Below are positions 9,501-34,024 of a stretch of 34,578 bases of DNA, piece after piece. Below the pieces are notes generated by a model. The model was not told where the DNA came from. It was given only the letters and a program-made list of their open reading frames with translations, and did not search any database. The translations under genes were made by a program, and so were the position numbers. The DNA is from Priapulus caudatus (Eukaryota; Priapulida; Priapulimorpha; Priapulimorphida; Priapulidae): the NCBI RefSeq assembly GCF_000485595.1, contig NW_014578952.1, forward strand, positions 14,510 to 49,087, read 5' to 3'. Numbering within the stretch: position 1 is the stretch's first letter; every line of letters starts with the position of its first letter.

Positions 9501-10267
9501 GATCGATCGAAAGTAGCGCTGTTAGGGATTTTCGGATGATACCGTCCTCTTTACATTTTCACGGAGAGAACATTTCCTGCAAGATTTCACGAGCTATCTC
9601 TGGCGGGAGTAGGTAAGAACAAAGGCCAGAGTTATAATTCGAACAAGTGAACATTTATGTACACATAGATACCAAGATGGGAGCTGTTGGATATGTTTTC
9701 GTTCTGTGATCGTGTGAAATGAAGCGAGCGTCGAGCGAATTTCGTGATCACGCTTTCCTACCTGCTCTCTTATTCATGTTGTTTGTGCACAGCGCGGGCG
9801 TGCGGTGTACTTGCGTGTTGCAGATGAGCATTGGACTGGCATTTACAGGTGATTATAGGCGAAATAGAGTAGAGAAACATTAAGACTTTGGTACCTACAT
9901 TTCGTGTTTATTTACCATTAATTTTTTTTATTGAGACGTTCCAAGTGCACCGTCACATCAGCGGGCAGTCACGCAATATCTACAGGGCATTTACTTAAGT
10001 ATTTAATGACGATTCCATAATCATAGAGGTTTAGTCGTGCTTCACTGCTTACCATCCACTGGAATGTTTGGTTTTCTAAGGTACGGACTTCCCCCGGGTC
10101 CAGACTGGTTACTGGCGTTGCTGTGCTTCGGTGACGGCGCATCGCCGCTTTCTGAAAAAATAGACATCATGGTATAAAACATGTTACATCAGTAACATAG
10201 ATGATGACATTTATCTACAGGTTAAAATTCAAACATTACCATATTCGTCGTGTTCACTCGACATCAT
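6506..10267 (-). CDS. PCNP: PEST proteolytic signal-containing nuclear protein (complete, six exons)
   Basis: Coding exons in transcript order: 10267-10240, 10151-10053, 7814-7639, 7312-7235, 7012-6960, 6629-6506 (TAA). All boundaries are GT-AG and phases join, giving 185 residues against 178 in human. The diagnostic C-terminal block is MPREAR then [19 protein letters not shown] and NKGRIGFSD (about residues 132-165). Upstream are Lys/Arg-rich nuclear-targeting stretches (EKRKSD, EKKSKL), the [11 protein letters not shown] motif near residue 95, and an acidic run GGDDSSDEEEE at the exon 4/5 join. PCNP is a small, largely disordered nuclear protein linked to cell-cycle control and ubiquitination by UHRF2. 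Two in-frame ATGs open the frame; the first was used. Intron 2 (7815-10052) carries the foldback transposon at 8953-9947. Confidence 0.95.
8943..9957. mobile_element. Foldback (long-TIR) DNA transposon in PCNP intron 2
   Basis: The left arm (8953-about 9360) and right arm (about 9543-9947) are inverted copies of about 410 bp with only scattered differences, around a GC-richer unique loop of about 180 bp. The termini read CAGGCACTTGGAACG inward; the right end lacks the outermost few bases. A perfect direct repeat CACCGTCACA (8943-8952 and 9948-9957) is the target-site duplication, 9-10 bp depending on the boundary. Duplications of 9-10 bp with long terminal inverted repeats are typical of Mutator-like elements. 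There is no transposase frame, so it is non-autonomous. In the pre-mRNA the arms would pair into a hairpin of about 400 bp. Confidence 0.9.
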
Positions 10268-16926: not shown

Positions 16927-16986
16927 ATAGTATCAGGAGTGGATAATAGAGTCATGCTCCTCTCTATGATCCACTCCTGATAGTAT
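16927..16986. mobile_element. Tiny palindromic element, copy A (46 bp, 7-bp direct repeats)
   Basis: The 46-bp near-palindrome 16934-16979 begins CAGGAGTGGATAATAGAG and ends with the inverted arm …ATCCACTCCTG. It is flanked by perfect direct repeats ATAGTAT (16927-16933 and 16980-16986). It abuts the larger TTAGGG-bearing element that follows, and a third ATAGTAT lies beyond that element at 17282-17288. Confidence 0.8.
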
Positions 16987-17289
16987 GGCTCATAGGGTCT
17001 ATGTCCCCGAGGGTACTGCCGGAACGTACCCTGGGTTCGGTCCGGTATACCGGAACGTACCCTGGTCACTATTTGATATGGTTAGGATTAGGATTAGGGT
17101 TAGGGTTCGGGTTAGGGAGTAGGCGTAGGCGACTCCCTAGACTCGTTAGTGGAGTAGGCGAGGTACGGTCCGGCATATTAGATAGTACCAGGGTACGTTC
17201 CGGTATACCGGACCGTACTATACCGGAACGTACCCAGGGTACGTTCCGGCAGTACCCCGGGGGACATAGACCCTCTCAGCGATAGTATG
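16979..17289. mobile_element. Long inverted-repeat element carrying a TTAGGG tract (Mutator-like MITE candidate)
   Basis: The arms 16988-17083 and about 17160-17280 are inverted copies of about 95-120 bp (right arm longer by an indel). The termini are GCTCATAGGGTCTATGTCCCC and GCTGAGAGGGTCTATGTCCCC. Both arms contain nested palindromes of CCGGTATACCGGAACGTACC. The centre (about 17083-17118) holds TTAGGATTAGGATTAGGGTT and further TTAGGG variants. A perfect 9-bp direct repeat GATAGTATG lies at 16979-16987 and 17281-17289, a duplication length typical of Mutator-like elements; a 7-bp reading (ATAGTAT) is also possible. No coding capacity. Confidence 0.75.
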
Positions 17290-17992
17290 ATATCATACTA
17301 GTGCAGGTTTCACAGCTAGATAATAAATATTGGGTACCGTAGTACCACGACTTTAAAACATGTAGGTTTTTCTAAATGGAAGGCTGTTCCAATTTAAGCT
17401 GTTTCTTCATGGTAGCATAGGTGTAAGGTGGTAGGTGGTAGTAAGGTGGTCCTCGTCCCAGTCCTCACCCAATCCGACAACACTGTTTACGTAAACCAGT
17501 AACCACACTTATTGTCAATCATTACAGATCATTCAATCATACCAAAAGTTTATTACCAAACTTATGAATATATGAATAAATACAATGGCTGAAACTACAA
17601 ATGACATACATGAAATTAACCCTTACTCGTTTTTATGTTCAGTTGAATTAATCCAAAACAGTTTTGATTTAACCTTGGAGAGATACATTGAATCTCACCA
17701 TCGTACACTAAGATTAGAATTGCATAATACAGTTGAGGAATATCTTCACAATACTAGATTCCTTAGTGCACAGCATTATTCTGTGAATTGTCGCGGGAAA
17801 TACGCAGGAAATTTTATAGCTGAGAGCATAATAAAAATATAGTAGAAATTTCTCATCACACTATAAAAATCGGTTATTAATATTATTCTAAGTTCATTGT
17901 TCACACTATCTTTCACCCTTGGTGTGTGTCTGCTACAAATACATAAAAGCTTACCAGCAAACAAAAATCGAGGCCACATCTCTCACGGTATG
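17290..17992. other. Anonymous spacer
   Basis: No gene recognised. A perfect palindrome AGTATGATATCATACT starts at 17284, at the right edge of the preceding element. A short GGTGG-rich patch lies at 17424-17447. The frame 17585-17842 (forward) has no known motif. Confidence 0.5.
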
Positions 17993-18045
17993 ATTATATC
18001 AGAAGTAGATAATAGTAGTTCCCTATTATCAACTCCTGATTATAT
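17993..18045. mobile_element. Tiny palindromic element, copy B (39 bp, 7-bp direct repeats)
   Basis: 18000-18038 begins CAGAAGTAGATAATAGTAG and ends …CTATTATCAACTCCTG, an imperfect palindrome with the family arm. It is flanked by perfect direct repeats ATTATAT (17993-17999 and 18039-18045). Confidence 0.8.
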
Positions 18046-19040
18046 TAATCAAGATGAATATTTTACTTCGTGAACCATCTATAATAAAAAAAAATATGCA
18101 CACTACTTCTCAAAAAAATAGATAATGTAACATATAATGAACATCAAACCGTTTTCTATGACATACTAATTCGGACTCTTAGTCAAGTGAAACAATCAAC
18201 TGACATGAGCATACCAGTGCTCAAACAGACTCAGAGTTAGCTGACGCCAATATGCATGAAAAGGGTGACAAGCATATATACATAGAACGCATACTTAGCA
18301 CAAAAGCTTTCCCATACACAATGAACATGCAACAAAGCAAAAATCTATATAGTCCTACGCTCACTCACCTCTGTACATCACATACGACGTGCTTCGAACA
18401 ATAATGCTGTGATCTCTGCTAAACAATATTACACAACCTGCGAGCCATTAATGCACGTCAGATGACCGTGAAAAGTAAGCCAGCAAAATACCTAAAATTT
18501 GTTTTTTAACCTCCCTGACTTCTGAGCTCCATACTCACAATTTGGCTGCATTTTATCCATGCTATATCCTGATACGCAAAGAAGCCCTTTCCACATTGTG
18601 CCGTTACACAATTGCTTAATGTAGGAGATGCTGGAAACCAGGCAAATGTCACCTCACGTTCTCTTATTGCGGGAAATGGCAACGAAAAGATGAAAGCAAG
18701 GCATCATTTTCAGACATACACTAACTATGGAATATCGCTGCGTGTGCCTCCTCACAACACACACAAACAGTTTTACACACAGTTCTGTAAACGTATCTCA
18801 CACCTCGCAGCCGAGAATACTATCAAAACTACTTCCACGAGTGACACCTCATTGAGTGTACTCATACTATACAGTACATTTCCTTACCAAGTGGGACGAT
18901 CACTATTTCAGCCCTATGTCTATCATATATAACCTTCACATCTGCACTACAGTGTCTTCCTCGTATTTCCCTCGCTAGAACGATCAACTGTCAGTAGAAC
19001 CAACTGCAACCCTCATCCGTCCACTTCATCCACCAGCTAC
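18046..19040. other. Anonymous spacer downstream of GTF2E1
   Basis: No gene or structured repeat recognised. The forward frame 18612-18932 has no known domain and is not conserved-looking. Confidence 0.5.
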
Positions 19041-19270
19041 TGACGCTAACACCCCGACGTATCAGTTGTACATGTTGGAGTAAGCTTCAAGTCCTATCCT
19101 GATGTACGTCTCCTTTTCTCCCAGCTACTGATGCTATCAGTCGTACATGCTGGAGTATGCTTCCTGTCCTATCCTGATGTACGTCTCCTTTTCTCCCAGC
19201 TACTGATGCTATCAGTCATACATGCTGGAGTATGCTTCCTGTCCTATCCTGATGTACGTCTCCTTCTCGG
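19032..19270. repeat. 75-bp tandem repeat derived from the GTF2E1 C-terminal codons
   Basis: The block GTCCTATCCTGATGTACGTC recurs at 19091, 19166 and 19241, a period of exactly 75 bp. Read on the reverse strand, each copy encodes a version of [17 protein letters not shown]-stop: the true GTF2E1 C-terminus (copy at 19212-19270) and two copies beyond its stop, the most distant diverged to …IGLEAYSNMYN-stop. That copy also carries an insertion of about 13 bp near 19048. Confidence 0.92.
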
Positions 19271-22200
19271 CGGCGGTCATCCTGGCGACTAGTTCCTCGG
19301 TCACCTCGTCTAGCGGAATCCTCATGTTACCGATGCTCACCATGACGGCTTCCTCGTCCTCGTCACTGTCGAAGTCTGCCACTGCATCTGTGAAGTACGT
19401 GACGATGGTAGTTCAGTTACACGGAATCGCGAATATGTACGCGTACATGTAGTTTACTCTATGTTAGCGGTCCCATCTAAAGAATGGGCGATCTGCCTAT
19501 CAAAGTCAATTTTGGCATTTCCCTTGAGTGAGCGCTAGACACTTGTTGGTTTAACTGTATGTAGAGAATGAGGGTAAGCCTGGCGAGTGTAACTCATAGC
19601 GTAACTTCAGCACTGGCCTAGCCAGCGAGGGGAACCAATGAGGATCCATCGGAACGGCTGGTCGTGGAACACGTTACGCTTACCTGCCGATGTCTGTGGC
19701 TTGCTATCCTCTTCCTCGCTCGTGTCGCTCTCGTTGCCGCTTCCCGGGAAATCCGCCGCCGCGCTCTTCTTCTCGTGCGCGAGTAGCGCTCGCATGATAT
19801 CATCGTTTTCGTCCACTGCGGCAGCAGGAGCGCCCTCTAGCACCGCCGACGGACCGGCGAATGACTCCGGCGCGGGGAACTGGAAAGCGAAATCCGGATA
19901 CATATTGTACGTGCACCCGATAAACGTGCATCATATCGCAGCTGTCATAACAAACTGCTCTCGATTTTAAAAAGATAACTATTGACTCGACACGAATGCA
20001 CTTTGAGACTTCTTTTTTCATTGTGATTTTTTTACTTTTACTATTTACGGTGACGTAATCACTTTAAATAATCTGTTGATTGACAAAAACAATAACGTAA
20101 TAACTCGTAACGATCGCGCTTTGCTACTCGCCTGCATCGAGGATTCACTCTCGATCGTCGACACGCCCTGTACAGTGCTAGCAGCCATCCAGATAGGCTG
20201 CTCCTTCTTCTCTACATCCCTAGCCTTCTTCTGTTCATCGCCAACATTCACGGTGACACCTTGCTCGTACATCTAAGTGCACAGGGAAAAAAATATAATT
20301 TATTTTTCGGGAGCTACTTTTCAAGCTCGCATGCATGAAAATAGCACTCTAAAATTTGGTTTGCATTAAACTCTATGCAAATTTCCGGGGGCTCTTTTTG
20401 GCATTTCCGGGGCTTTTTTTGGCATTTCAGGGGGCTAAATCGCCCCGAGCCCCCGTGTATTTTTTTCACTGTAAGTGCAGGATAAATCACACGGAGAGTA
20501 TAGAATACAGATAATTATCACGTGTTAGAGAAATCAGTCCTAAATGATTATCTATTCTGCTTCTGTGAATATGTTCATATGTAGGGACAGTGATTTTCCG
20601 TTTCAAAAAATTGCCTTTTCCGTTTGGGAAAATCATGAATTCCGTTCTAAAGTAAAGAAAAAATGGAAATTCCGTTTTGCCATAGAGATTGTACACACCA
20701 AAAATGCAAAATTCCGTTTACATAATATATTTGCATGAAAAAAAAAGGATTTGGTACAACCTTTGAAACCGGAACCGGCACCGAAACACAGGGCTACCAA
20801 AAGTCGTAATTGTAAGTTATTTCGCTCTGAAACTTGTCTGAATGTATACCAATGCTATTGTCGACTGTTTTTTGTGATTTTATTGAAATTTCCATGTTGT
20901 AATATGTTCAAATTACGTTCTCCCGTTTGAAAACATCTTTTCCGTTTCCAATAGCCGTTTCCGTGTTTTCCGTCCGTTTTCCGCGATCGCGGAAAATCAC
21001 TGTCCCTACATATGTATATCATATACGGTTTATGAATAATTATTTATAAATATACATTGCTCCGATAACACTGAAAGATTTGAGCATTGATGCTGCCTCA
21101 AAATAATCAATGCAAGAACAACCAACATGTATGTATTAATTAAATATATGAATATATGAGATGTAATCTTGGTGAGTAACCTGGAAGCCGGTATGCTGCT
21201 GGCCGCTCCATACATGTTGGTTTGGGTCTCGCGTTTGACCCATTCCTGCATGTCCCCTGAAAAATAAGTTTACATATATTACTCGAGGATTTCACTAGAA
21301 GCCGACAGACGGTAAATTCAGCGACAGTGTGGCTTGTATGCTATGTATTTAATATAAGCCCATAGACCCCCCCGACCAAGCCCGTAGCTGCTTTTAACAT
21401 GAGGTACTGTGGACCTCATCTTACCTCTCCTGATGATTTTACTCCTAGTAGTTTCAAGATGATCAAATTGAGTAAAACAACACCCGATTACTTATATCCG
21501 ACACAAACAACATAACTACCCAAAAACCGCAAAATCCTCAACTTTATAATTTAACGTTAGTGATATGATAACGCCTAAACGCATCTCTAATTTCTTGCCA
21601 ACACAAAATTTCATAACCCAGCATCCCCAGCAACAGTTGCATCGATTACTTTCCAACAAAAAACACTCTCGCTGCATACGATCTCTCACGTGGCAGCAAC
21701 CCACAGTGTAGTTTTCTACACACGACAAACACTACACACATAACATTGGAACCGTGCGCGCGAAAAATAAACTTCATCGATACGGCTTTCACGATCGACG
21801 GCGGCAGACACACCCCGCCGGGATAAGATTAAATACTATTATATAAGAATATATAACAAGCAAATATAGGGAAGACCGTTAGATGCAGTTCACTTTAAAA
21901 TAAAAAATGTTTAGTTTTTAAAATAAAATAATAAAAAAATTGTTTGAATTTTTCCCAAGACGGAAATGCGTCTAGCAGACGGACAGTTAGCACCCATGGA
22001 GACGGTTTTCCCGACCGACGCCAGCAGACGCCCCGCGCCCGCACCTGTTAGGCATGTTGGCGCGGATGCTCTCTATGTTCGTCGGCTCCGGTTCGAGGAT
22101 GCTCTGGTCCAACCGCATGTCCTCCGTGTCTCGCATGAGGTCGAATATCGGCTGCATCTGCTCGTTGAATCGCGCGAGAAGCGTCCGTGCGTCCTTCTTC

Positions 22201-22724
22201 GGCAGCGAGCCGTGGTCCTCCTCCACCTGCGTGTTGCAGTAACTGCAGCGGAACTCTCCCGTCGTGAAGTCGAAGAGCCGGTCGACCTCGAGGTCGGTGT
22301 ACGACTTTGCGCAGTTTCCGCACTTGAACGACGCGCGACTCGTCGAGTCTCGCTCCTCAACCTCGATGCGCCGCCGCATGTGGTCGAGCCGGTACTTGAC
22401 GACGTTCACGAACACCTTGTAGTTGATGAAGTAGTAGTTGTGCTTCGACGCCTTGCCGTCCGCGGTCGTCTCGACGCGAAGACGCACCTTGATGAGTTTG
22501 TCGGCTTTCAGCTGGCCGATGATCGCGCGGAGGTGCTTGCGTTCGAAGCGGAGAAGCTCGGCAAGGTCGTCTTCCTTCACGCATGGGTGGCTGACTAGGA
22601 GGTCGATGACGATGGCGTGTTCGACGCCGTAGAATCCGCGTACGACGAGGCGAGCGAGACGCTTCAGGCTGCTGGGAACCTCAGTAAGGATCCCACCGTG
22701 AACGTGCTGCAGAAGCGACGCCAT
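19212..22724 (-). CDS. GTF2E1: General transcription factor IIE subunit 1 (TFIIE-alpha), complete, five exons
   Basis: Exons in transcript order: 22724-22045, 21256-21181, 20272-20132, 19879-19684, 19387-19212 (TGA); 422 residues against 439 in human. Residues 12-120 are the winged-helix domain ([40 protein letters not shown]). The C4 zinc ribbon is intact: Cys135, 138, 160, 163 (FKCGNC…FRCSYC). [14 protein letters not shown] and ILEPEPT follow. Exon 3 carries [13 protein letters not shown], exon 4 [13 protein letters not shown], exon 5 the acidic C-terminus ([32 protein letters not shown]) that binds TFIIH. With TFIIE-beta it loads TFIIH onto the RNA polymerase II preinitiation complex. Exon 2 must be read in the frame [14 protein letters not shown]; the more protein-like [11 protein letters not shown] frame breaks both junctions. 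The exon 3 donor appears to be GC (ATGCAG|GCGAGT). Confidence 0.95.
20383..20460. repeat. Short imperfect tandem repeat (TTGGCATTTCCGGGG unit) in GTF2E1 intron 2
   Basis: Three imperfect copies of a unit of about 27 bp that ends in a G run plus a T run. A C-rich inverted match (GCCCCGAGCCCCC, 20441-20453) follows that could pair with the G runs. Confidence 0.6.
20576..21014. mobile_element. MITE with 19-bp TIRs in GTF2E1 intron 2 (hAT-like candidate)
   Basis: Perfect terminal inverted repeats TAGGGACAGTGATTTTCCG lie at 20582-20600 and 20990-21008. Each is flanked by CATATG (20576-20581 and 21009-21014). CATATG is its own reverse complement, so it may be either a 6-bp target duplication or part of the TIR. 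The interior repeats TTCCGTTT motifs in both orientations and has no transposase frame. A TAGGG… start is common in hAT elements, but the usual 8-bp duplication is not evident. Confidence 0.82.
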
Positions 22725-22961
22725 GACGCCTACTCCACCAGATCCTCAGAGCGGCGCGTTGTCGCGGAGCGAGGGAACCTGGAAATCGATTATACGTGTG
22801 ATTGATCGATTGACGGGTTCGACGCAGAGTTCGTGAAGAAATCTAAGCTGTAAAAAACGTGTTAACAGAAACACCAATCACTTGTGGGTGGAACCCACAC
22901 ATAATTTTGAAATGAAATATAAATCGTGAATGAAATATATAGGAACCAAACCATGCAGTTT
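22725..22961 (-). promoter_or_regulatory. UQCC2-GTF2E1 spacer with orphan 3' splice sites
   Basis: The 237 bp between the UQCC2 stop and the GTF2E1 start contain, on the reverse strand, a good acceptor ACGTTTTTTACAG| (exon would start at 22847) and a second, ATCGATTTCCAG| (22778). No AATAAA or ATTAAA was seen after the UQCC2 stop. The acceptors could close a 5' UTR intron or serve as trans-splice sites; the sequence alone does not decide. Confidence 0.45.
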
Positions 22962-23339
22962 CTATTTCCCAGTCTTCTTTTTCTTCTGCTCAGATTTCTG
23001 CTGTGCCTGCCACCATCTTCTGTTTTCCTTGTCAATTATCTGTAAGCTCTCAGTTGCCATCAACAAGTGACATTCCTCTAGGGTTAATCCGGTAGACGCT
23101 GTTCCTTCCTGAAACTTAACTTGGTATTTGTCTTTGTGTTTGTTGAGTGCAAGAGTCATTAACGCGTCGTAATATTTGTCGCACTCTACGGCGTTGGCGA
23201 TTTTCGTCGTTTCACCTTCACGAAATGTTTCTGCGACTTTGTTGCGAATATGCTGTCCAAGGTCACGGCTAAACTTGCTATTGTCAACTGGCCACATTTC
23301 TAGCAGCCGCACAAATTTTCTGTACTGGGAAAATGCCAT
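22962..23339 (-). CDS. UQCC2: Ubiquinol-cytochrome c reductase complex assembly factor 2 (intronless)
   Basis: A single uninterrupted exon of 125 residues, against 126 in human. The family signature is clear along the length: YRKFVRLLEMWPVDNSK…RDLGQHIRNKVAETFREGE near the N-terminus, CDKYYDALMTLALNKHKDKY in the middle, then GLTLEECHLLMATESLQ and a Lys-rich tail. UQCC2 is a mitochondrial nucleoid/matrix protein that works with UQCC1 to stabilise newly made cytochrome b during complex III assembly. The start chosen gives a family-length protein. The vertebrate gene has introns; this one has none, yet the frame is intact and it lies in a tight cluster, so it is a gene rather than a processed pseudogene. 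Confidence 0.94.
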   Translation of the reverse strand: MAFSQYRKFVRLLEMWPVDNSKFSRDLGQHIRNKVAETFREGETTKIANAVECDKYYDALMTLALNKHKDKYQVKFQEGTASTGLTLEECHLLMATESLQIIDKENRRWWQAQQKSEQKKKKTGK

Positions 23340-23473
23340 CTCGCATTTTTTGGCTATGCTTGCACGCTAGTAGTAGGAACAGATGTGCACGTAGTGACGT
23401 ACAAATCACAAGTAGTTGAAGTACAAATGACACAGTGAACGCGATATCACTGCGTGGATCGCAAATAAGCAAT

Positions 23474-23761
23474 TTAGTGATGCTGTTCGTTGCCATGCAT
23501 GGCCTCGAAATGACACAAAGTCTTATATTTCTGTAATAGTTCGTTCTTCAGAACAACCTGTTTTCTGAGAACATCAATCTGCTGCTGTTGTTCTGCCTTA
23601 CTCAGTTCGATTCCCGGCAACTTCGCAATTTGATGTCTACACAGCTCAAATAGCCGGCTCAGCTCTGCCAGCTTCTGCGCAACATCATGAGAGTCCTTTT
23701 CAATACTCCTTATAATTTCATATATTAACGAAAGGAAATTGACATCAACGCACTCGCCCAT
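23474..23761 (-). CDS. MED9: Mediator complex subunit 9 (intronless)
   Basis: A single exon of 95 residues. The MED9 core is recognisable: FLSLIYEIIRSIEKDSHDVA, then KLPGIELSKAEQQQQIDVLR and KNELLQKYKTLCHFEA, predicted to form the paired helices that hold MED9 in the Mediator middle module with MED4, MED7 and MED21. The long disordered N-terminus of vertebrate MED9 is absent. Mediator bridges activators to RNA polymerase II. It is the first gene of the reverse-strand trio and ends 134 bp before the UQCC2 start, with no canonical polyadenylation hexamer seen between them. Confidence 0.93.
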   Translation of the reverse strand: MGECVDVNFLSLIYEIIRSIEKDSHDVAQKLAELSRLFELCRHQIAKLPGIELSKAEQQQQIDVLRKQVVLKNELLQKYKTLCHFEAMHGNEQHH

Positions 23762-23782
23762 AGTGCATTTTGCAATTAACGT

Positions 23783-23827
23783 TCATTCCAGATAGACACG
23801 AAAAACGCTGAAGAGCGCTGCCATATT
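23783..23827 (-). promoter_or_regulatory. MED9 upstream region: YY1-like motif overlapping a 13-codon upstream ORF
   Basis: AATATGGCAGC on the reverse strand (23827-23817) resembles a YY1 site. Its ATG opens a frame of 13 codons (MAALFSVFRVYLE, 23824-23783) that ends 21 bases before the MED9 start. If transcription begins upstream, this upstream frame could lower MED9 translation; if it begins inside, the frame is irrelevant. Confidence 0.4.
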
Positions 23828-24059
23828 GGACCGGGTGCCGCGATTTTAAAACACAAGGCGCACCCGACGGCGAGTCTTCGTTTTTATACATTTTTTATTT
23901 ATAAAGTGCAAGCGTCATATTCAAGGTTTGAATTTACATATTAGTATTTGTGTTGACATTCATATTCATAGGTATAAATGACTTCAACTGAGATTATTGA
24001 CATCTAGAATTCGTAATCGTTTTCTGACGGTGAGGAGCTCGCAAGCTGATGTTGATTTA

Positions 24060-24182
24060 TCATTAATGCATATTAATATGCCTATTAATGCATTTTAATT
24101 AATTTAAATTTAAATTTAATTTTTAAATTTAAATTTAAATTTAATTTTAATTAATTTTAATTAATGCATATTAATTAATGCG
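24060..24182. repeat. AT-only self-complementary tract
   Basis: More than 100 bp made almost only of A and T, built from TTAAT, AAATTT and ATTAATGCAT blocks. The right part repeats the left part inverted (TTAATGCATATTAAT). It can fold back along much of its length. Confidence 0.8.
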
Positions 24183-24334
24183 CCACCATATATAGCTAGG
24201 CCTAAATGAAAAATATATAAGCTAAACAGATAAATAGCAATCACCTTGATTAGTATTCGCATCTGTATCCGTATTCGAATTTACTATATACTAAATAAAA
24301 TAAAGCTAACAAATGTACCGCTGTATATGACCAC

Positions 24335-25175
24335 TTTCAAACAAAGAAAGAGAGGTAGGCCCCTACCACTTACAAACGTAGTTTGGAAAGTCCTAGCAGA
24401 CGTCATCTTGCAGAGACTACATCACCTGCAGAGAAGATATACCCACAATCTCAGCCAGGGTACCACAGGGGCAGAAGTACTGTGGATGGAATCTTCACCA
24501 TTCGACAAGTAATGGAGAAAACGAGAGAACAGCGCAGAAGTTTGTATATAGCTTTTGTGGACTTCACTAAAGCGTTTGACACGGTGACACCGTCAATCGT
24601 GAGCTATTCTTTATCATCCTGAGTAAGCTGGGCTGCCCTGCAAAGTTCATAAGAATCATCAAGAAGCTATATACGAGCGTGCATGCAAGACTCATTGTAG
24701 ATGGTGAACTCACACAGGCCTTTGAGTACAACAGTGGTGTCAAGCAGGGTTGTAAGCTAGCACCAACACTTTATGGCATCTATGCAGCTGTTTTACTTTG
24801 TCTTGCTTATAAGAAAATCAAGCACACCTGCAGTGTAAAGGTCAGATTTCGCTATGATGGTGATATATTTGATCTTCGAAGACTGAAGTCAAAGACCAAA
24901 GTTCTTACCGAGTACATCAGGGAGCCTCAATATGCAGACGATATAACCATATTCAGTGACACTTCGGCGGGACTACAGTTGTTACTCACAGCTTACAACG
25001 ACCTTGCTAAGAAGATGGGACTACGTATTAACACTGCAAAGACAGAGACCATGTGCATTGGTACTGAAGCTGAGTTCTTCATAGCTGACACCAAGTTGGC
25101 GAACGTCACCCGCTTCAAATACCATGGCAGCTATGTAACAAATGGTCAAAGACTGGTGCGGCGTAGGCTGTGATT
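24335..25175 (+). pseudogene. Decayed non-LTR retrotransposon reverse transcriptase
   Basis: RT palm and finger motifs in order: LPLTNVVWKVLADVILQRL (24362 on), GYHRGRSTVDGIFTIRQVME, LYIAFVDFTKAFDTV (first catalytic Asp region, about 24542-24586), HARLIVDGELTQAFEYNSGV then KQGCKLAPTLYGI (24682 on), FNLRRL-like FDLRRLKSKTKV, and the catalytic QYADDI (24929 on) followed by MGLRINTAKTETM and FKYHGSYVTNG. Frame changes near 24440 and 24620 split it and the endonuclease and C-terminus are missing, so it is dead. It differs from the fossil in DNAJC8 intron 2. The clade cannot be set from motifs alone. Confidence 0.9.
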
Positions 25176-25486
25176 GGAAGACACAAAGTGTCAATCCTCG
25201 GCGCGCCTCGGCATCATGGCCGCATCACGTCTAGCGCATACTACAGCAAACGAATACACGCAGGTTGAGGAGACCGTGTAAAGGGCATGAAGTGACTAGG
25301 TGACAATTGCTAGTCACGGCAGGTAACAATATGCGCCAGATAAGGTACGCAAATACGGCCGGTGACGGGACGACGGCGAGGATGTCAAAAGGCGGATCAA
25401 TCTATAACCGAAAAATCCAAGGCCCCCCCCCTCAAGGCTGACGTAGCCGAGCCGGTGTACGTGTGACGAAAACTTCGCGATGTTAC

Positions 25487-25551
25487 GCTGCCCGCTATAC
25501 GGATTCGCGCGCCCGCCCTCCTTCGGCGCGCGAATCCGTATAGCGGGCAGC
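25487..25551. repeat. Perfect 26-bp-arm GC-rich hairpin
   Basis: The arm GCTGCCCGCTATACGGATTC plus GCGCGC (25487-25512) is matched perfectly in inverse at 25526-25551 around a 13-nt C-rich loop. The flanks GCGATGTTAC and GCGAGATGCTAC are only roughly repeated, so a target duplication is not established. Confidence 0.9.
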
Positions 25552-25943
25552 GCGAGATGCTACATACAACACCCCGCGGTCGCGTGCGCCTAGCTCCCGC
25601 GGAAGTGCGCGGCTTAACCACTCTCGGCGGTCGGGGAACAACGCATCTTTTGCGCAACGCAACCCTGTATCCGGTCTCTCTGGATGATTTACAATACAGG
25701 ATTAACAGGGTTACGCCGTCGGCTAAACAAATATTTGCTATATACTCAGAATTACTGCAGTTTATCTGTAAATGCGCCCGAAAAACAGTGTGTCAGTGAG
25801 TCCGTCAAACTGTTTCGCAACCATTAGGCCTAACCCACTTTACGTTGAAATTAAGTGGAACTCTTTACGTGTTCCTGACTGTACCATTGTATTAATTTTT
25901 CGTAGACGGGACGCATGGCGTTCTGTTGCTCCGATGCCGATGC

Positions 25944-25998
25944 GTCGGTCCCATAGAACTAGAAATATAACTTCTATTTCTAGTTCTATGGTCGGTCC
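25944..25998. mobile_element. 39-bp palindrome flanked by 8-bp direct repeats
   Basis: The palindrome 25952-25990 begins CATAGAACTAGAAATA and ends with its exact inverse around a short A/T-rich loop. It is bracketed by perfect direct repeats GTCGGTCC (25944-25951 and 25991-25998). Size and architecture resemble the CAGGAGTAG family elsewhere in the window, but the arm sequence is different. Confidence 0.75.
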
Positions 25999-26254
25999 GT
26001 GCACACTCACGTGGACAAGTGAATGTAGACGTAAATGAGTATATACAATTACTGTCACGTCCACAGAAATGTTTATAGAGAGTATAATTATTATGGTATT
26101 TCTATCGTCACGTATCTCACGTCCTGTCCCGTCCTTTTCCCCGCGCGCGTCTCTCGCGGGCCAGATCGCGGATGCCTGCTCGCGCTACGCGCGGGGTTAT
26201 ATATATTTCGCCCTCGAGATGGCGCTATGCTGTCGTATTTAAATCTTTAGTGTA

Positions 26255-26505
26255 CGCGCGAATATAGCAACCGGCAGTTAGATGCGATATGATATGACTA
26301 CTAGGCACTTTAATTTAATTTAATTTTTTTTTTTTTAGGGTTAGGGTTAGGGTTTAGGTTAGGTTTAGGGTTTAGGTTAGGTTAGGGTTAGGGTTTTTTT
26401 TTTTAAGTGCCTAGTAGTCATATCCTAAGTGCCTAGTAGTCATATCCTAAGTGCCTAGTAGTCATATCATATCGCATCTAACTGCCGGGTGCCGAATATA
26501 CGCGC
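26255..26505. mobile_element. Inverted-repeat element carrying a TTAGGG/TTTAGG tract
   Basis: The arms at 26269-26311 (GGCAGTTAGATGCGATATGA then TATGACTACTAGGCACTT) and about 26404-26487 (inverse) match almost perfectly, with weaker extension to ACGCGCG motifs at 26254 and 26499. The right arm has three tandem 22-bp copies of CCTAAGTGCCTAGTAGTCAT(AT) where the left has one. The centre (26334-26394) is TTAGGG/GTTTAGG telomere-type repeat set between T runs. No convincing target-site duplication was found. Confidence 0.75.
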
Positions 26506-27480
26506 GTGTGCATATAATTATGTGTGCTTACGTGCACATGTCACTGTACATAGTGTCACTGATGATTGATCTCTATAATTATACTAACGTTGGTCTGTGT
26601 ACCTACGCTCCACTGCTCACTAGCTAGTGGCGAAATTTGTGAGATTTATATCCAAGTTCCATGTTAGGTTATATGATTCGAATGCCACTGCACCTGGTCT
26701 GCGAAATGTCAAAAGTGCATGATTATATTCGAGAATCCCCACCGTAACCCTATAAATATCATTCGCCTAAATATATTATTTCTATGATCTCGATTCTTCG
26801 GTGCTCAGCTACTGGTCGGATGTAAAAAGCACGCGTAACCAGGGAAAGACACGTTGATCTTCTGGAGAGCTAGTGCTTCCCCCTATAAACAATAGCTACG
26901 GCCATCACGCGCCGAGTCGCGATTGGCTGAGTCGCTGCAGTCGCTGGACAGCAAAAAAACCGGTACCAAGTTGTTTTCGCGTGTCAATCAATATAATCGG
27001 AGTTACGGGAACGAGAACGGTAAGCGTGTACATTACTACTAAAGAGTGTATTTTTTACTCGAGAAATATCGTGGAAATGCAAGTTTGCGCGATCACTAGC
27101 TGCCCGATGGTTTACATGATGGGCACAGTTGTTTCGCTGTTGTTTTATACCGCTGTCATCGTTTCGTTTAGCGTTTGCTGGTGTCGTGATGGCACTGATA
27201 CTGATACTGATAGTGATTGTGATACTCGGTGACGGGTTGTCACCGATTGTGTGTGTGTGTACATTGATTGCATAGACCACCTTCTATGCGTACAACGCTG
27301 ACTGTGCGATCCTAACCGTTACACGATGATATGCTATATTTACTTATGCATAGCAAATATGGTATATTTGCACATGATTATTTTCGGAGCCTAGAGTAGC
27401 AAGAATTGAAGCGTATTAGCCGTATACACAATCGATCTACATTGTAAGTTTTGGAGAGTAGGCCTAGTTGTGATTTCAAC
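26506..27480. other. Anonymous spacer
   Basis: No gene recognised. Around 26890-27010 a GC-richer patch has an inverted CCAAT box (GATTGGCTGAG, 26921) and a good donor-like AACG|GTAAGC at 27020. It could be a promoter with a first exon, but no protein homology supports that. The forward frame 26873-27232 is unrecognised. Confidence 0.35.
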
Positions 27481-27720
27481 TGCCAGTGCCAGTTGCGTTG
27501 CCAACTCTCTTATTCATGTTGTTTGTGCACGCAGCACAGGGCGGGCGTGCGGTATACTTGTGTGTTGCAGATGAGCATTTGACCGGCATTTACAGGTGAT
27601 TATAGGCGAAATAGAGTAGAGAAACATTTGGACTTTGGTACATTTCGTGTTTATTTACCATTAATTTTTGTTATTGAGACGTTCCAAGTGCCTGTGCGTG
27701 TGCCAGTGCCAGTTGCGCTG
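27481..27720. mobile_element. Single-arm copy of the foldback element, between 20-bp direct repeats
   Basis: 27503-27696 matches the right arm of the 8953-9947 foldback element from CTCTTATTCATGTTGTTTGT to GAGACGTTCCAAGTGCCTGT, and preserves the outer end that the intronic copy lost. It is bracketed by TGCCAGTGCCAGTTGCG[T/C]TG at 27481-27500 and 27701-27720 (19 of 20 identical). The inner arm, loop and opposite arm are missing. Confidence 0.85.
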
Positions 27721-27776
27721 GAACCACCTTTTCTTGGTTGCGTACGTGACAGTGATCATGTCATCATCTATAACTA

Positions 27777-27829
27777 TATAGCCCCCCGCTCCGCCGCAGG
27801 CCGCCTGCGGCTGAGCGGAGGGCTATAAT
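27777..27829. repeat. GC-rich short palindrome
   Basis: TATAGCCC[C/T]CCGCTC and the GCCGCAGGC core pair with the inverse half around 27804, with one indel. The sequence just to its right (GAGCGGAGGGCTATAATTCT, then AGA…GAGCTAG) recurs in similar form at 33524-33553. Confidence 0.75.
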
Positions 27830-28362
27830 TCTAGACTAGAGCTAGATCCGTTCATTCGTAACACCCTCATTTTCTCAACACTTTCGCAACAGTAATAGGG
27901 CCGTAGCCTGCGGTACGTGGTCACAGCTAGCTGCCCCCTAGATTTTGGAGCAAAATAAAAAAAATAAATTGTTCTACTAAAAGAGAATTGTCGTAGTCAG
28001 AATGAAGGCTGTACATGTGCTCAAAAGTACCTCAAATACCATCTTCCGCAATCTACATTTTCAAAATTTTCTGTGGGAGAACCCCCAGACCCCACCTGTT
28101 TCTCACCCCCTCCTTGAAATCCTAGATCCACCACTGCCCCCCCCCCTAGGATTTTGCTCAGCCTACGGTCCTGCCATAATGATCTATACTGCATGAGCTC
28201 TTATATGTATGTGACGTTCTGTAGATGTATTATGGGCCAAGCTGGCAGTGACTGATGGAGTGTGAGTATAATCTATAGAGTATAAAGTAGCCTCTGACAT
28301 GACTCATAAAAAGTGTAAAAAAATTGGCACGTAGCACACACATCCTGTCTTGGCTATCTGCT

Positions 28363-28611
28363 TAAATTGGGTTTACAATGCCGACTTTATGTTGTAAAAT
28401 TGGCGAGTTGGACCAATTTTGTAATTCGGCAACAAAGAGTTGGTGAAAATAGAACATGTTCTAATCACCCAACTAGTTGCTATTGATCAGTTGCTCGCAC
28501 GACTTTTGCGTTTACACTGCCGATTGTTGGTTGTATACAAAGTTTGCGAAATTGGTCCAATTCGCCAATTTGACAACATAAGTCGGTACCAGGTAGTGTA
28601 AACACAGTTTA
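28363..28611. mobile_element. MITE with about 60-bp TIRs and TA duplication (Tc1/mariner-like candidate)
   Basis: The left end AATTGGGTTTACAATGCCGAC (28365 on) and the inverse of the right end AACTGTGTTTACAC…ACCGAC share about 60 bp with indels, including TTATGTTGT, AAATTGGCGA and TTGGACCAATTT. TA flanks both ends (28363-28364 and 28610-28611). The 245-bp body has no coding capacity. Confidence 0.8.
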
Positions 28612-28723
28612 GGTGGATGAGTGAATCTTCCAGTGAGTACTCATGAGCTGATATGCTGAATCATGGTGTTGTGTAATGTTTTATACATGCACCTAGTGTT
28701 GGAGATCGGTCCAAATTTCATGA

Positions 28724-28815
28724 TTGATCATCGGTTTTACAAAACAACCGATGATCAATTAATCATCGATCATTTTAGATTGCGGCGGCGACGCGGTGAC
28801 GCCGCGTCGTCGTCG
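28724..28815. repeat. Two adjacent hairpins
   Basis: TTGATCATCGGTT (28724-28736) pairs with AACCGATGATCAA (28746-28758) around 9 nt. About 25 bp further on, GACGCGG and CCGCGTC pair in the GC-rich stretch 28783-28815. No flanking duplication was found. Confidence 0.6.
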
Positions 28816-28839
28816 ACACAACCGGTGCATTGAGAAGGA

Positions 28840-29340
28840 ATATTGACATTGTATGTGTAGCTAGTATTTAATGGTAAGTAAATTAAGGATACTGTTAGGG
28901 TTCCGGACGGGTAACTAAGGGGCATTGCAACATAACTGCTCATCAAATTCAATCAAACTCATATCCATTACATAAGAGAGATGTCTCTCTATGCTATCGA
29001 TGCTATTATTAAAAATTCATTGCTAATTAAATGACGGCAAAAATTGTGAATTTATACAAAAATGCTTTTTTTGTTATATCTCAGAAACAGCAGATTTGGG
29101 ACCTAAACTTTTAACCATAAGTTGTTCTTAATATGAACAAAAAAATGGTCCCTGGAATTTTTTTTAAATGCTTTAATTTAGGAAATAAGTTGAAAAGATG
29201 TAGGAAAATTTAGGATTAGGCTTGATTTTCAGGAAACAAAGTCGCTTAGTTCCTTGAAAATTTACACCGCACCGTGTTTACTAATATATATATATTAAGC
29301 AATTATATATGTTAAATATGTTGACACATATATATGAATG
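28840..29340. other. Anonymous AT-rich spacer
   Basis: No gene or structured repeat was recognised apart from isolated TCCTTGAAAAT motifs (near 29252) like those of the next element. Confidence 0.4.
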
Positions 29341-29370
29341 TTGAATGCCAATGCAAGTGTTTTTGCCAAT

Positions 29371-29918
29371 GCATGGTTTGCACAGTCCTTGAAAAGTCCT
29401 TGAATTTGAGGGGAGTCCTTGAAAAGTACTTGAATTTAGTAAATGTTGATTTTGTGCTTGAAAAGTCTGAATTTCATGAAAATGTCCTTGATTTTTTAGA
29501 AAGAATCCTTGCCTGTAATAAAAAGAAATTTGTACCATCAATAATGTGCAAACTTCAATAAAATTTGCAATAAAATTTGCGTTAATTGAGCTTAAAAAGC
29601 TATAGACACGATAGACAGTTAAATGATGATCACAAATTACATTAAGTCAGTAAAATCAGTGGGTAAATCAAGGTATGTTGTAGATGTGACAATGACAGTG
29701 TTTAGAAGGGTTTATTAATGTGATCAAGAGTAGATAATCTACTCTTGATGTGATCCAGGTAAGTTTTAGAGGTGACAGTGATTAAGAATGGGGTTATTAA
29801 ATTAATCCAGATATGTTTTGTTCTGTGTATGAATTCCGATAAAATGTCCTTGAATTTCTGATAAAATGTCCTTGAAAAGTCCTTGAAAAAAATTTCAGTC
29901 CTGTATGAACCATGCAAA
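29371..29918. mobile_element. TCCTTGAAAAG-rich DNA element (candidate) with short TIRs
   Basis: The ends TGCATGGTTTGCACAG (left) and TGCATGGTTCATACAG (inverse of right) form imperfect 16-bp terminal repeats. AGTCCTTGAAAAGTCCTTGA-type motifs cluster next to both ends. Inside, two tandem units of about 65-80 bp (from about 29671 and 29755) share AGGTA[TA]GTT…GTGACA…GGGTTTATTAA. A tiny palindrome (copy C) is inserted at the end of the first unit. No coding. Confidence 0.55.
29718..29754. mobile_element. Tiny palindromic element, copy C (23 bp, 7-bp direct repeats)
   Basis: 29725-29747 begins CAAGAGTAGAT and is a complete palindrome around one central base. It is flanked by perfect direct repeats ATGTGAT (29718-29724 and 29748-29754). 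The neighbouring tandem unit has the equivalent sequence without the palindrome and with a single target (TTATTAAATTAATCCAG, around 29804-29820). Confidence 0.8.
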
Positions 29919-29924
29919 TTGCAA

Positions 29925-31310
29925 TATCATGTTTCACGCTTGCTTTCTAGATTCCAAATGTGTAAAATGTTGCTAAATTATGGCATGATATCCTTCAGGT
30001 AAAACAGCATTGTAGGCTATTTGCTCATTAATGCTATAAATAAAAATGTAGGTACTCGCTAACACGGCTGAACCCACCGGCTCGGAGGGCCGGTGTTTTG
30101 CCAATGTTTCTGGCCCTCCAAATAATTTGCCGGCATATATGCCGGTGGGCCAGTGCTAATTTCGCGCCCTGGCCCCTGGGCATATCAGTAATTTGGTGTC
30201 ATAGATTGATTACTCCCAGTAGGAGATGGGTGGGTTCTTCGGATGGGAATAGAGGCAGTCAGGCATATCATGGGTAATCCTCACAAAGCGTTCGGAATTT
30301 TAGACAAAGTCGGCCAACATTAAAAACCCATAAATCTGGTTTTAGTGTGCACAAATGACATTTACGCTATCTTATCACCCTTCAAGGACCAATCGTATCC
30401 TGAACGTCACACTCGCCTCGCCGACTTGGGAAACATCCCGACAATCTTCGTCACGTGCGAATGCGATGTGTAGACATTTCTCAGCTGTCGGTTACTGAAT
30501 TTTTCATGCTGACCAACTTAAATATTTAACACGGTCCCCCTTACCCTTCCGACATGAGCGATCGTATCGCGCGTAAGTGCTTCCTATTAGCAGGTCCCAG
30601 AGTGCCAGCGATCACATTATTCATCAGGAGAGAATACAGCTTGCATATTAAACAGCTCCTTGCCATTCATACTCTGCTCCCGCCCGAGTCGTGGCGCGTA
30701 ACGACGCGCACTTCTAGTATATATAATCCACGCTCTACCGTCGCCGTCGGGTGTCTCTGCGGCGTGTTGAGAAACACCGACGCTCTCCGCGTGATCTCCA
30801 GACTCGCTGTGATGGATTTAATCGCCTTTTTTACGTTGAACTGGATCTCTAGACGATCAGGGGCCAGCTGATCGGCCTCCTTCTCAGGAGCTCATAGCTC
30901 CCGGGCGAGACAATGGAGGGTTGACACGCCCCGCATTGTCATTGCTGATCGTATCACAGTTTCCCGCCGAACATCGCGGCGTGAAGTAGGCAGTTACATT
31001 AGCGAATACACGGGTATGATTTTACGAAATAAAGACCACCGGCGATAAGAGCGATAATAGCGGAACACCGAGTGATAGCCGCCGCTGATTGTATTGTCGT
31101 ATCTTGGCGTCCTCGTAAACTAACAAGTCAAAAGTCAAAACAGAGTAGATTGGCGATATATCTAAGGTCTCATGACGTTGTTTACTTTGCTTCGTTACCG
31201 GGGTCGGTGAGTGTACTCTATGAGCGTCGGTAAAGCCGTACCACGAGGTCGTGGGTACGTGGTTACAGCACTGTCAGCGTTTAGGTAATTAATCATTGTA
31301 AATTTGTAAC
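29925..31310. other. Anonymous stretch with a GC-rich patch
   Basis: 30061-30180 has short inverted blocks (GGAGGGCC/GGCCCTCC; CCGGCATATATGCCGG). 30540-31100 is GC-richer and open in a forward frame (30554-30871) and in a reverse frame of about 75 codons (about 30888-30660; …DRLEIQFNVKKAIKSITASL…). Neither is recognised as a known protein and neither has clear splice sites. Confidence 0.3.
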
Positions 31311-31316
31311 GTATTG

Positions 31317-31320
31317 TTAA

Positions 31321-31364
<44 letters not shown>
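31317..31364. repeat. (TTG)n microsatellite
   Basis: About fifteen uninterrupted TTG units. Confidence 0.95.
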
Positions 31365-31365
<1 letters not shown>

Positions 31366-31636
31366 GATGTGAGCTGCGGGAATGACCGGAGTAGTAGTGT
31401 AGTACGGTGTTTTAGCTAACAGAAAGAGAGAGGGAGAATTCGGCACATTACCCATGCAATTCTTCAGGGACGGCCGGCGATGGGCACAGAAGACATTAGA
31501 AGATAGTAGTAAGTCCGCTGCTAAGCCCTCCATCCTCCTTTATGACCTAGGGGGTGTTTGCCCCCTCCTCCATTCTGCGACCCTTTGCAGCTGTCATGTC
31601 GTATTGACGAGTGGGAGGCTGGATAATGTGATGAGC

Positions 31637-32120
31637 TTCATCTTAGAACAGCTTCATATAGTGGTCATCTTAGAACAGCTTCATATAGTGGTGATCTTAG
31701 AACAGCTTCATATAGCGGTCATCTTAGAACAGCTTCACATAGTGGTCATCTTAGAACAGCTTCATATAGTGGTCATCTTAGAACAGCCTCATATAGCGGT
31801 CATCTTAGAACAGCTTCATATAGCGGTCATCTTAGAACAGCCTTATATTGTGGTCATCTTAGAACAGCTTCATATAGCGGTGATCTTAGAACAGTTTCAT
31901 ATAGCGGTGATCTTAGAACAGCTTCATACAGCGGTGATCTTAGAACAGCTTCACATAGCGGTCATCTTAGAACAGCCTTATATAGCGGTCATCTTAGAAC
32001 AGCTTCATATAGCGGTCATCTTAGAACAGCCTTATATAGCGGTCATCTTAGAACAGCTTCATATAGCGGTCATCTTAGAACAGCTTCATATAGTGGTCAT
32101 CTTAGAACAGCTTCATAGAG
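31637..32120. repeat. 27-bp minisatellite, 18 units
   Basis: Tandem copies of ATCTTAGAACAGCTTCATAT plus AG[T/C]GGTC. The length of 27 keeps one forward frame open, translating as repeated ILEQLHIAV (18 copies). Units differ mostly at single bases (T/C at the AGTGG/AGCGG position; CCTTAT for CTTCAT), and variants are interspersed. The open frame is a by-product of the period; no other coding evidence was seen. Confidence 0.95.
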
Positions 32121-33355
32121 TTGCTGCAGCGGTCATTGTCGCTCGCTAGTTCCGCATTTGTAATGGTGTTCCGCTCTAAGAGTAGGCACTAATGTCGTCT
32201 GCTTAATTAACATGCTCACATCTATCAAGACCGCCTGGCACCCCCAATTATATATATGCGTTTCATTCGGCTCTCTCTTCGTAATCACTACAGACTACAG
32301 TGCGTGTTCTATATTAGGCCACCCTTAAAAAATTGTTTGTTTCCCTATTACCTACTCGCCTCTCAGCGTACCGAGTAGGTAGGTAGGTGAAAAATATTTT
32401 TTATTTTGTTTTGACAAGATGTGTGTATGTATATTGTATATTCTGTTTTGTGTATATGTTTTGCGGAACGAATTTGATTTTTTTTTGGCGAAAACGGAAT
32501 TATTTTTGTTTTGTTTTAATCGGCCAATAAAATGTGTCGAGTAGCGGCGTTTTGGCGAGTCGGTCGGTAAAGGGGAAACAAGCAATATTTTATCTAAGGG
32601 TAACACTTACGGTAATACGCTGTGCGCTCATCCTTATAAAACGTACGTGTTTGTTAGTAGGTCGTGTGACTGTGTTCAGTTATGTAATAGACAATTGAAG
32701 GATAACTTTTATGTAAAATAAACGATTTATTTAGTACTTGTGTTGTGCTGTAACACAGAATTTGTATGCGTGGCTATTTAAGAGATGGGAAAACATTATA
32801 TAGGGATGGGGGTTGGATTAGCGTAGCGTAATTGCTGTTGTTAGTATTGAATAGAAGTGGTGCATGTGGTGTCTGGGCATAGTTTGTATAGAAATCTACT
32901 AGTTGAGTGGCGGTCTGTGTTTGGTTTAAAAGTAGATCATTAGTCTATGGTCTTGAGAAGTATTTCTCATTAAGACATTAACTGGTTTGCTTCCAGCATT
33001 ACCAGTAGTAGCTAGCAGATGTTGTTTATTAGATAGAATGGGTGCGAACAACTGGGTATAATAATGGATCTTTGTATGATGGTTGCTTGGGGGGTTGCTG
33101 TGGCTGGAGATCTTGAAGGGTTTGGTTGTGTGCCCATGTGGAGTTTGGATTGTAAATAAATAATAAATATTTGGCTGAAACACACTTCCGGTTCACTATT
33201 TTGGTTTTCTAAAGTTATCATGGCTGTGTACTGAGCAGGTTGCCCCGCCAAGGTGCAGTAAGTTTGTGTTTGCACGCAGTAGAGCGACAGTGTTCCTTAT
33301 ATCATAATGTTTAGAGGAGATGTATTGTAATATTTTATATTTAACCGTTAGTTAC
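32121..33355. other. Anonymous AT-rich spacer
   Basis: No gene recognised. A short hairpin (TACCTACTCG / CGAGTAGGTA, 32349-32382) is the only structure seen. Confidence 0.4.
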
Positions 33356-33516
33356 AGGCTAGTGCACACAGTACTATAGCGCACATAGTACTATAGCGCA
33401 CATAGTACTATAGCGCACATAGTACTATAGTGCACACAGTACTATAGCGCACACAGTACTATAGCGCACATAGTACTATAGTGCACATAGTACTATAGTG
33501 CACACAGGCTAGTGCG
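33356..33516. repeat. 17-bp minisatellite, 8 units
   Basis: The unit AGTACTATAG[C/T]GCACA[T/C] is repeated eight times. It contains the palindrome TAGTACTA or CAGTACTA. The array is bracketed by the direct repeat CAGGCTAGTGC (33356 and 33506). Confidence 0.92.
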
Positions 33517-33970
33517 TGTGTCAGAGCGAAGGGCTATAGTTCTAGAGCTAGTGCGTAGGTTGTCATCATTGCTAATCGTATATTGCTATATTGCTATATC
33601 ATGCAGTATTGCTATCAATGCTAATCTGCAGGCTTGTAGAGCGTATAGAAATAGCTGTCATGCGTGATTGCCTAAATACGTCATGTTTGATTAGATAAGT
33701 GTTGTAGGTGATAACTGGACAGGTGTGCAAATACAACCAGGTTGTACCTGTGTATCCGAAAGTTCAGGGAATGTGTGAAACCCACACGAAATTTTTTTCC
33801 CCACAGTTTTATTTTTTCCACATTCCACGTTCAAAAACATTAAAAAAGTGGGGAATTTTTGCACCGAGCTCGGGACACCGTCACAAGACGAAAACACAAT
33901 AGGTGATATGCTATATAATGGGAGTTCTCCCATATATACTCTTGCTTTATATATCCCCCCTCCCTCTTCT

Positions 33971-34024
33971 ATCACACCAGGAGTAGATAATAGGGAATTC
34001 CCTATTATCTACTCCTGATCACAC
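33971..34024. mobile_element. Tiny palindromic element, copy D (40 bp, 7-bp direct repeats)
   Basis: 33978-34017 is a perfect 40-bp palindrome whose half is CAGGAGTAGATAATAGGGAA. It is flanked by perfect direct repeats ATCACAC (33971-33977 and 34018-34024). This is the cleanest copy and sets the element ends at CAG…CTG, because here the palindrome does not extend into the flanks. Confidence 0.87.

What the first reader, a model, noticed from the sequence alone, without database searches (positions are those of the whole stretch)
16927..34024. A family of ultra-short palindromic insertions with perfect 7-bp direct repeats
Seen: four dispersed palindromes of 46, 39, 23 and 40 bp (16934-16979, 18000-18038, 29725-29747, 33978-34017) share the arm CAGGAGTAGATAAT(AG), start CA and end TG. 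Each is flanked by its own perfect 7-bp duplication: ATAGTAT, ATTATAT, ATGTGAT, ATCACAC. The flanks differ from copy to copy, so they are target duplications rather than part of the element, and they suggest a target preference AT-NNN-A-(T/C). Known: 7-bp duplications are unusual (P elements 7-8, Dada 6-7), and MITEs are normally longer than 80 bp. Inference: a mobile family that is essentially two fused terminal repeats with no interior, moved in trans by an unseen transposase. I know of no described family like it.
Basis: partly seen in the sequence, partly recalled or inferred. Interest (0 to 1): 0.87.

Follow-up and report, generated by a model that had tools for sequence, protein, structure and literature searches.

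The report
Transposon excision scars resembling mini-elements
In DNA of a priapulid worm, four short mirror-image sequences flanked by 7-letter repeats look less like tiny jumping genes than like healed scars left when larger P-type jumping genes cut themselves out, and what looks like a scar of a second family lies nearby.

Summary
The host is Priapulus caudatus or a near-identical relative: 227 residues of TFIIE-alpha match exactly. A scan blind to the arm found a fifth case of another family: 39 bp with CATAGAACTAGAAATA arms and an 8-bp repeat, 25952-25990.

'Moved in trans as mini-elements' is not the best reading. The four centres differ while the outer 14 bases are conserved, so the copies were not amplified from one master. 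The anatomy (target repeat, 11-20-nt end stub, joint or filler, stub, target repeat) is that of published Drosophila P-element excision junctions: of 63 that keep both target copies, 38 are 23-46 bp long and 19 of the 39 of 20 bp or more are perfect palindromes. CA...TG ends and 7/8-bp repeats fit the P superfamily.

So: most likely end-joining scars of two P-type families. No intact element or transposase was seen; the genome search did not complete in 21 tries, so membership and copy number are untested. Five scars and no recognised interior-bearing copy in 34.6 kb is the surprise.

The parts
16927..16933 (.). left target duplication ATAGTAT of copy A1
16934..16979 (.). A1: stubs 18 nt / 18 nt (CAGGAGTGGATAATAGAG / reverse complement CAGGAGTGGATCATAGAG) around 10-nt filler TCATGCTCCT (16952-16961)
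16980..16986 (.). right target duplication ATAGTAT of A1; also inside the 9-bp repeat GATAGTATG of a later insertion
17993..17999 (.). left target duplication ATTATAT of A2
18000..18038 (.). A2: left stub 16 nt, 3-nt filler TAG (18016-18018), right stub 20 nt
18039..18045 (.). right target duplication ATTATAT of A2
25944..25951 (.). left 8-bp target duplication GTCGGTCC of B1 (second family)
25952..25990 (.). B1: stubs CATAGAACTAGAAATA 16 nt / 16 nt around 7-nt filler TAACTTC (25968-25974)
25991..25998 (.). right 8-bp target duplication GTCGGTCC of B1
29718..29724 (.). left target duplication ATGTGAT of A3
29725..29747 (.). A3: left stub 14 nt and right stub 11 nt sharing a 2-nt AT junction
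29748..29754 (.). right target duplication ATGTGAT of A3
33971..33977 (.). left target duplication ATCACAC of A4
33978..34017 (.). A4: perfect 40-bp palindrome, stubs 20 nt / 20 nt, centre AATT
34018..34024 (.). right target duplication ATCACAC of A4

Best explanation
The palindromes are excision scars of full-size cut-and-paste elements of the P-superfamily type. An element with CAGGAGTAGATAATAGGGAA ends inserted and duplicated 7 bp of target (shown: the duplications and the ends). The transposase later cut at the outer tip on one strand and about 17-20 nt inside the element on the other (inferred, from the P element). The element left, and each broken end kept its 7-bp target copy plus a single-stranded stub of the terminal repeat. 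The two stubs, being inverted copies of one sequence, were joined end to end, sometimes through short microhomology, sometimes with trimming or a few filler bases (inferred; the products are what is seen). A second family (CATAGAACTAGAAATA ends, 8-bp duplication) left one scar. The scars themselves are probably immobile, because they lack the interior of the element.
For: Four family-A copies have four different junctions (18+10+18, 16+3+20, 14 and 11 sharing AT, 20+20) on conserved outer ends. The Drosophila P junctions tabulated by Chan et al. 2010 have the same plan: 8-bp target copy, remnant of a 17-nt tail, microhomology, blunt joint or up to 15 nt of filler, remnant of the other tail, target copy. 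Of 66 isolates, 63 keep both target copies, with 4-44 bp between; 38 of these lie between 23 and 46 bp, and 19 of the 39 of 20 bp or more are perfect palindromes. The 17-nt stagger is called unusual for P. CA...TG ends as in P and zebrafish Pdre2. Target duplication 7 as in 1360 and Galileo, 8 as in P, Pdre2 and Anopheles P. T at position 2 and A at position 6 in 4 of 4 family-A duplications, as in 1360 GTTNAAC and Galileo GTANTAC. A second, unrelated family has the same anatomy. P transposase binds sites inside the 31-bp repeats and is cited as requiring internal sequences, so pieces of 23-46 bp should not move.
Against: No intact or internally deleted family-A or B element and no P-type transposase was seen: none in the 30 of 162 listed window ORFs that I scanned, and the whole-genome search did not complete. 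Family-A stubs reach 20 nt, longer than the 17 of Drosophila. The published junctions come from Rad51-deficient flies; in wild type, copying from the sister is favoured at first and most products are partial copies followed by end joining, so deleted elements with some interior should be commoner than bare scars, yet the end search (up to 3 mismatches) recognised no such copy in 34.6 kb. Twenty of the 63 fly junctions leave only 4 or 7 bp, a class my scan could not see. Fillers show no excess of templating: 472, 1000 and 736 of 1000 shuffles did as well. A1's two arms agree with each other at 17-18 where they leave the consensus, so part of the inner difference may be a subfamily's end. Family B's duplication lacks the last-but-one A.
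Confidence: 0.66

Rival explanations
1. Ultra-short mobile elements: palindromes of 23-46 bp are transposed in trans by a transposase that needs only the terminal 14-20 bp.
For: Perfect target duplications at all four copies, unrelated flanks, shared arms, no recognised interior-bearing copy in the window, and arm changes mirrored within a copy (G at 8 in both arms of A1, A at 3 in both arms of A3).
Against: Each of the four copies has its own centre and length; a transposed family should share both. Needs two such families in one window (A and B). The P-related MITEs described in Anopheles keep roughly the first and last 100 nt of a P element.
Confidence: 0.17
2. Short palindromic MITEs of one fixed length whose centres were later rearranged by hairpin cutting and trimming, so that only the outer arms look constant.
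For: Changes are concentrated at the centre (9 of 16 inner cells against 7 of 81 outer), where a hairpin loop would be.
Against: Needs rearrangement in at least three of four copies while the target repeats stay perfect in all four; palindromes of about 40 bp are usually stable in animal genomes (recalled). Does not explain family B with its 16-nt stubs and 8-bp repeat.
Confidence: 0.08
3. Excision scars or aborted gap-repair products of another superfamily (hAT-like, or an undescribed one) that also cuts far inside its ends.
For: Family A begins CAGG, as many hAT elements do (recalled), and hobo's target GTNCGNAC also has T second and A last but one.
Against: hobo, the hAT family in that table, has an 8-bp duplication, not 7, and hAT excision is not known to leave 16-20 nt of each end (recalled).
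Confidence: 0.08

Closest known systems
Drosophila P-element excision junctions (Chan et al. 2010, PMC2895639; section with Table 1 and passages seen)
   Same: Both target copies kept (63 of 66 isolates), two inverted end stubs joined by microhomology, blunt or with filler; perfect palindromes common (19 of the 39 isolates of 20 bp or more).
   Different: Made experimentally from one P element in Rad51-deficient flies; 8-bp target, 17-nt tails. Here natural, several sites, 7-bp target and stubs to 20 nt in family A.
1360 and Galileo (P superfamily; PMC3276498, PMC4168063, PMC2775673; passages seen)
   Same: 7-bp target duplication with T second and A sixth (GTTNAAC, GTANTAC).
   Different: Their end sequences were not compared here; Galileo copies have long ends and interiors, and no scars of the present kind were mentioned in the passages seen.
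Zebrafish Pdre2 / THAP9 (PMC10983969, PMC7776569; passages seen)
   Same: CA...TG ends, short terminal repeat (13 bp), 8-bp duplication as in family B.
   Different: Sequence differs (CATACCTGTCAAC); full-length and internally deleted copies are known there.
P-MITEs of Anopheles gambiae (PMC1562414; passages seen)
   Same: Non-autonomous, P-like ends, perfect target duplications.
   Different: Carry P-related 5' and 3' regions and a shared interior; duplication 8 bp; not bare palindromes of 23-46 bp.

Membership tests
P superfamily | 7- or 8-bp target duplication | tested here: met
   7 bp in 4 of 4 family-A copies, 8 bp in the one family-B copy; compare
P superfamily | terminal repeats beginning CA and ending TG | tested here: met
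   5 of 5; P CATGATG and Pdre2 CATACC. Other superfamilies share this trait (recalled)
P superfamily | symmetric target with T second and A last but one | tested here: inconclusive
   A: 4 of 4; B (GTCGGTCC) has T second but C last but one. hobo (hAT) shares the trait
P superfamily | excision leaves about 17-nt stubs of both ends between both target copies | tested here: inconclusive
   Stubs of 11-20 nt in 5 of 5 by sequence anatomy; no excision was observed, and stubs of 18-20 exceed the Drosophila 17
P superfamily | THAP plus RNase H / GTP-binding transposase in a full-length element with the same ends | tested here: inconclusive
   None in 30 of 162 listed window ORFs; genome search unanswered
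P superfamily | subterminal transposase-binding sites | not testable with these tools
   no interior present
MITE | copies share length and interior (descent from one master) | tested here: not met
   4 lengths and 4 centres in 4 copies
MITE | terminal inverted repeats and perfect target duplications | tested here: met
MITE | high genome copy number | not tested
   genome search unanswered (21 requests)
hAT | 8-bp target duplication | tested here: not met
   Family A: 7 bp in 4 of 4. Family B meets it

The most novel reading that the evidence does not exclude
At the boldest, a host-controlled transposase removes them in development, and the assembly shows the healed state.
Probability: 0.13. 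Interest if true: 0.8.

Novelty: new member of a known kind. Interest (0 to 1): 0.46.

Why it matters
Scars of this kind are a natural library of double-strand-break repair junctions in an animal outside the model species: each shows which repair route was used (annealing, blunt joining, filler). They would also show, from sequence alone, that the unusually wide cut of the P element is shared by relatives in a priapulid. For annotation, short palindromes with target repeats can be mistaken for mini-transposons when they are what a larger element leaves behind.

Tried and rejected
Segmental duplication: flanks unrelated in the ten pairs compared. Chance: excluded. Structured RNA or tRNA: no match at gathering cut-offs, no tRNA. 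Viral contigs: palindrome patterns for A and B had 0 matches, which says little about animal genomes. Printed sequence: four arm strings searched in the paper library gave one paper, on mouse-lemur receptors, holding one of them (listing only; taken as chance). Published accounts of P-type scars as dispersed palindromes: none recognised in the listings; these are limited to the held open-access library, and some lists were cut (20 of 54 papers, 20 of 21, 15 of 70, 10 of 39). Of papers I saw passages only and one whole section. Template search for fillers: no signal. With looser settings the scans also return places that I set aside: 17194-17232 (begins TA, one mismatch in its repeat), 20676-20710 (5-bp arms), 13178-13205 and 17193-17233 (repeats of 6 and 5), and rows from an AT-rich array near 24.1 kb and a 17-bp tandem array near 33.4 kb. 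A possible decayed family-B copy near 12086-12125 has no target repeat by eye (printout) and was not counted. A 4-mismatch family-A-like end at 32341-32360 lies in an outward-facing inverted repeat and was not counted. Below-cut-off Pfam hits (SrfB, CHORD, SACS) were taken as chance.

A tally of the fly table made used 44 of 66 isolates and wrongly dropped 19 that do keep both target copies; redid it with all 28 rows and replaces it (63 of 66).
Full report
Setting. The window is nuclear DNA of a priapulid worm. Its minus-strand ORF at 21990-22745 matches the TFIIE-alpha family, and residues 1-227 of the Priapulus caudatus protein P0001 are identical to it; the differences lie after residue 227, where the ORF probably runs on into an intron. 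UQCC2, MED9 and a LINE-type reverse transcriptase lie nearby.

Check of the observation. The four palindromes and their perfect 7-bp flanking repeats are present as described. Chance is excluded: a 7-bp match has probability 7.4e-5 by composition, so four of four is about 3e-17, and the 60-bp flanks of different copies are unrelated (13-37% ungapped identity in ten pairs, the fifth case included). The arm CAGGAGTAGATAAT occurs 12 times with up to 3 mismatches against a shuffle mean of 3.5; 8 of these are the arms of the four copies.

A fifth case. A scan that knows nothing of the arm (palindromes of 18-70 bp with perfect direct repeats of 7 to 10 bp, tandem arrays masked) returned the same four places at each of three arm settings: copies A1, A3, A4 and a new one, B1, at 25952-25990, CATAGAACTAGAAATA-TAACTTC-TATTTCTAGTTCTATG between two copies of GTCGGTCC (8 bp). 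A fourth setting that allowed one mismatch in the repeat added 17194-17232, which begins TA, and a shifted form of A4. Sixty first-order Markov sequences (20 for each of three of the four settings) gave one hit in all. Copy A2 is missed because its two arms differ at positions 4 and 8 and because of a filter on the base before the repeat. The five cases begin CA and end TG.

Anatomy. Against the consensus end CAGGAGTAGATAATAGGGAA, the outer 14 positions are well conserved and the centres are all different: A1 is 18 nt, 10 nt of filler, 18 nt; A2 is 16, 3, 20; A3 is 14 and 11 sharing an AT; A4 is 20 and 20, a perfect palindrome with AATT at its centre; B1 is 16, 7, 16. Mismatches fall in 9 of 16 cells at positions 17-20 of A1 and A2, against 7 of 81 cells at positions 1-14 of A1-A3 (A4, which matches the consensus throughout, is left out, and A3 has no inner positions). 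Part of this may be a subfamily difference, since A1's two arms agree with each other at 17-18. Copies amplified from one master should share the centre; these do not.

Mechanism. The P element of Drosophila is cut with an unusually wide 17-nt stagger, and in the excision assay of Chan et al. 2010 each broken end keeps a 17-nt 3' single-stranded tail. Their Table 1 lists the sequenced junctions that follow: target copy, remnant of one tail, microhomology, blunt joint or filler, remnant of the other tail, target copy. Of the 66 isolates, 63 keep both target copies with 4-44 bp between them; 38 of the 63 lie between 23 and 46 bp, 20 leave only 4 or 7 bp, and 19 of the 39 of 20 bp or more are perfect palindromes. 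The five cases here have the same plan as the longer class. The two tails are inverted copies of one sequence, so annealing at a self-complementary centre, such as AT in the fly and AATT in A4, yields a perfect palindrome with no further assumption. The steps of cutting and joining are inferred; the products are seen.

Which superfamily. CA...TG ends, 7-bp duplications in A and 8-bp in B fit P and its relatives: 1360 has 7 (GTTNAAC), P has 8 (GTCCGGAC), Galileo has mostly 7 (GTANTAC), Pdre2 and Anopheles P have 8. The A duplications ATAGTAT, ATTATAT, ATGTGAT and ATCACAC share T second and A sixth with 1360 and Galileo, although hobo of the hAT group has T and A in like places. The test that would settle it, a full-length element with these ends and a P-type transposase, could not be made: the own-genome search stayed busy in all 21 requests, and in the 30 of 162 listed window ORFs that were scanned the only mobile-element domain was the reverse transcriptase.

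Relative age. A 293-bp element with inverted ends (54 of 60 bases alike; 16988-17280) is flanked by GATAGTATG on both sides. Its left copy consists of the last base of A1, A1's right-hand target repeat and the next base. The simplest reading is that it was inserted after A1 had taken its present form.

What does not fit. The window has five scars and no recognised copy with an interior, whereas in wild-type flies most repair products are partial copies of the element followed by end joining. Family-A stubs reach 20 nt, which could mean a wider cut or a few bases of such copying. Fillers are not demonstrably templated. Mirrored changes in the two arms of A1 and A3 need source elements with matching ends, or later correction of one arm by the other.

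Verdict. Real and striking; most likely excision scars of two P-type families rather than a mobile family of palindromes. New families of a known kind of product; the density is the part that deserves a genome-wide look.

Noticed in passing
16979-17289: A 293-bp element with about 60-bp inverted ends (GCTCATAGGGTCTATGTCCCC) and a 9-bp repeat GATAGTATG sits at the right-hand repeat of copy A1, giving three copies of ATAGTAT and a relative date.
   Followed up: partly
26259-26500: A 226-bp element with inverted ends GCA(A/C)CCGGCAGTTAGATGCGATAT, 8-bp repeat CGAATATA and TTAGGG-like repeats inside.
   Followed up: no
9109-9791: A 667-bp inverted-repeat element with long arms; its 8-bp flank TGTGCACA is self-complementary, so it may belong to the arms. 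A stretch of about 160 bp starting at 9787 recurs at 27534-27691.
   Followed up: no
25486-25552: A 67-bp hairpin with perfect 28-nt arms (CGCTGCCCGCTATACGGATTCGCGCGCC) and no flanking repeat seen by eye.
   Followed up: no
32328-32402: An inverted repeat whose arms resemble family-A ends pointing outward (4 of 20 mismatches on one side); possibly chance.
   Followed up: partly
12086-12125: A possible decayed family-B palindrome (core GAACTAGAAA) without target repeats.
   Followed up: partly
31638-32117: A 27-bp tandem array of about 18 copies that stays open as a repeated nine-residue unit in one frame.
   Followed up: no
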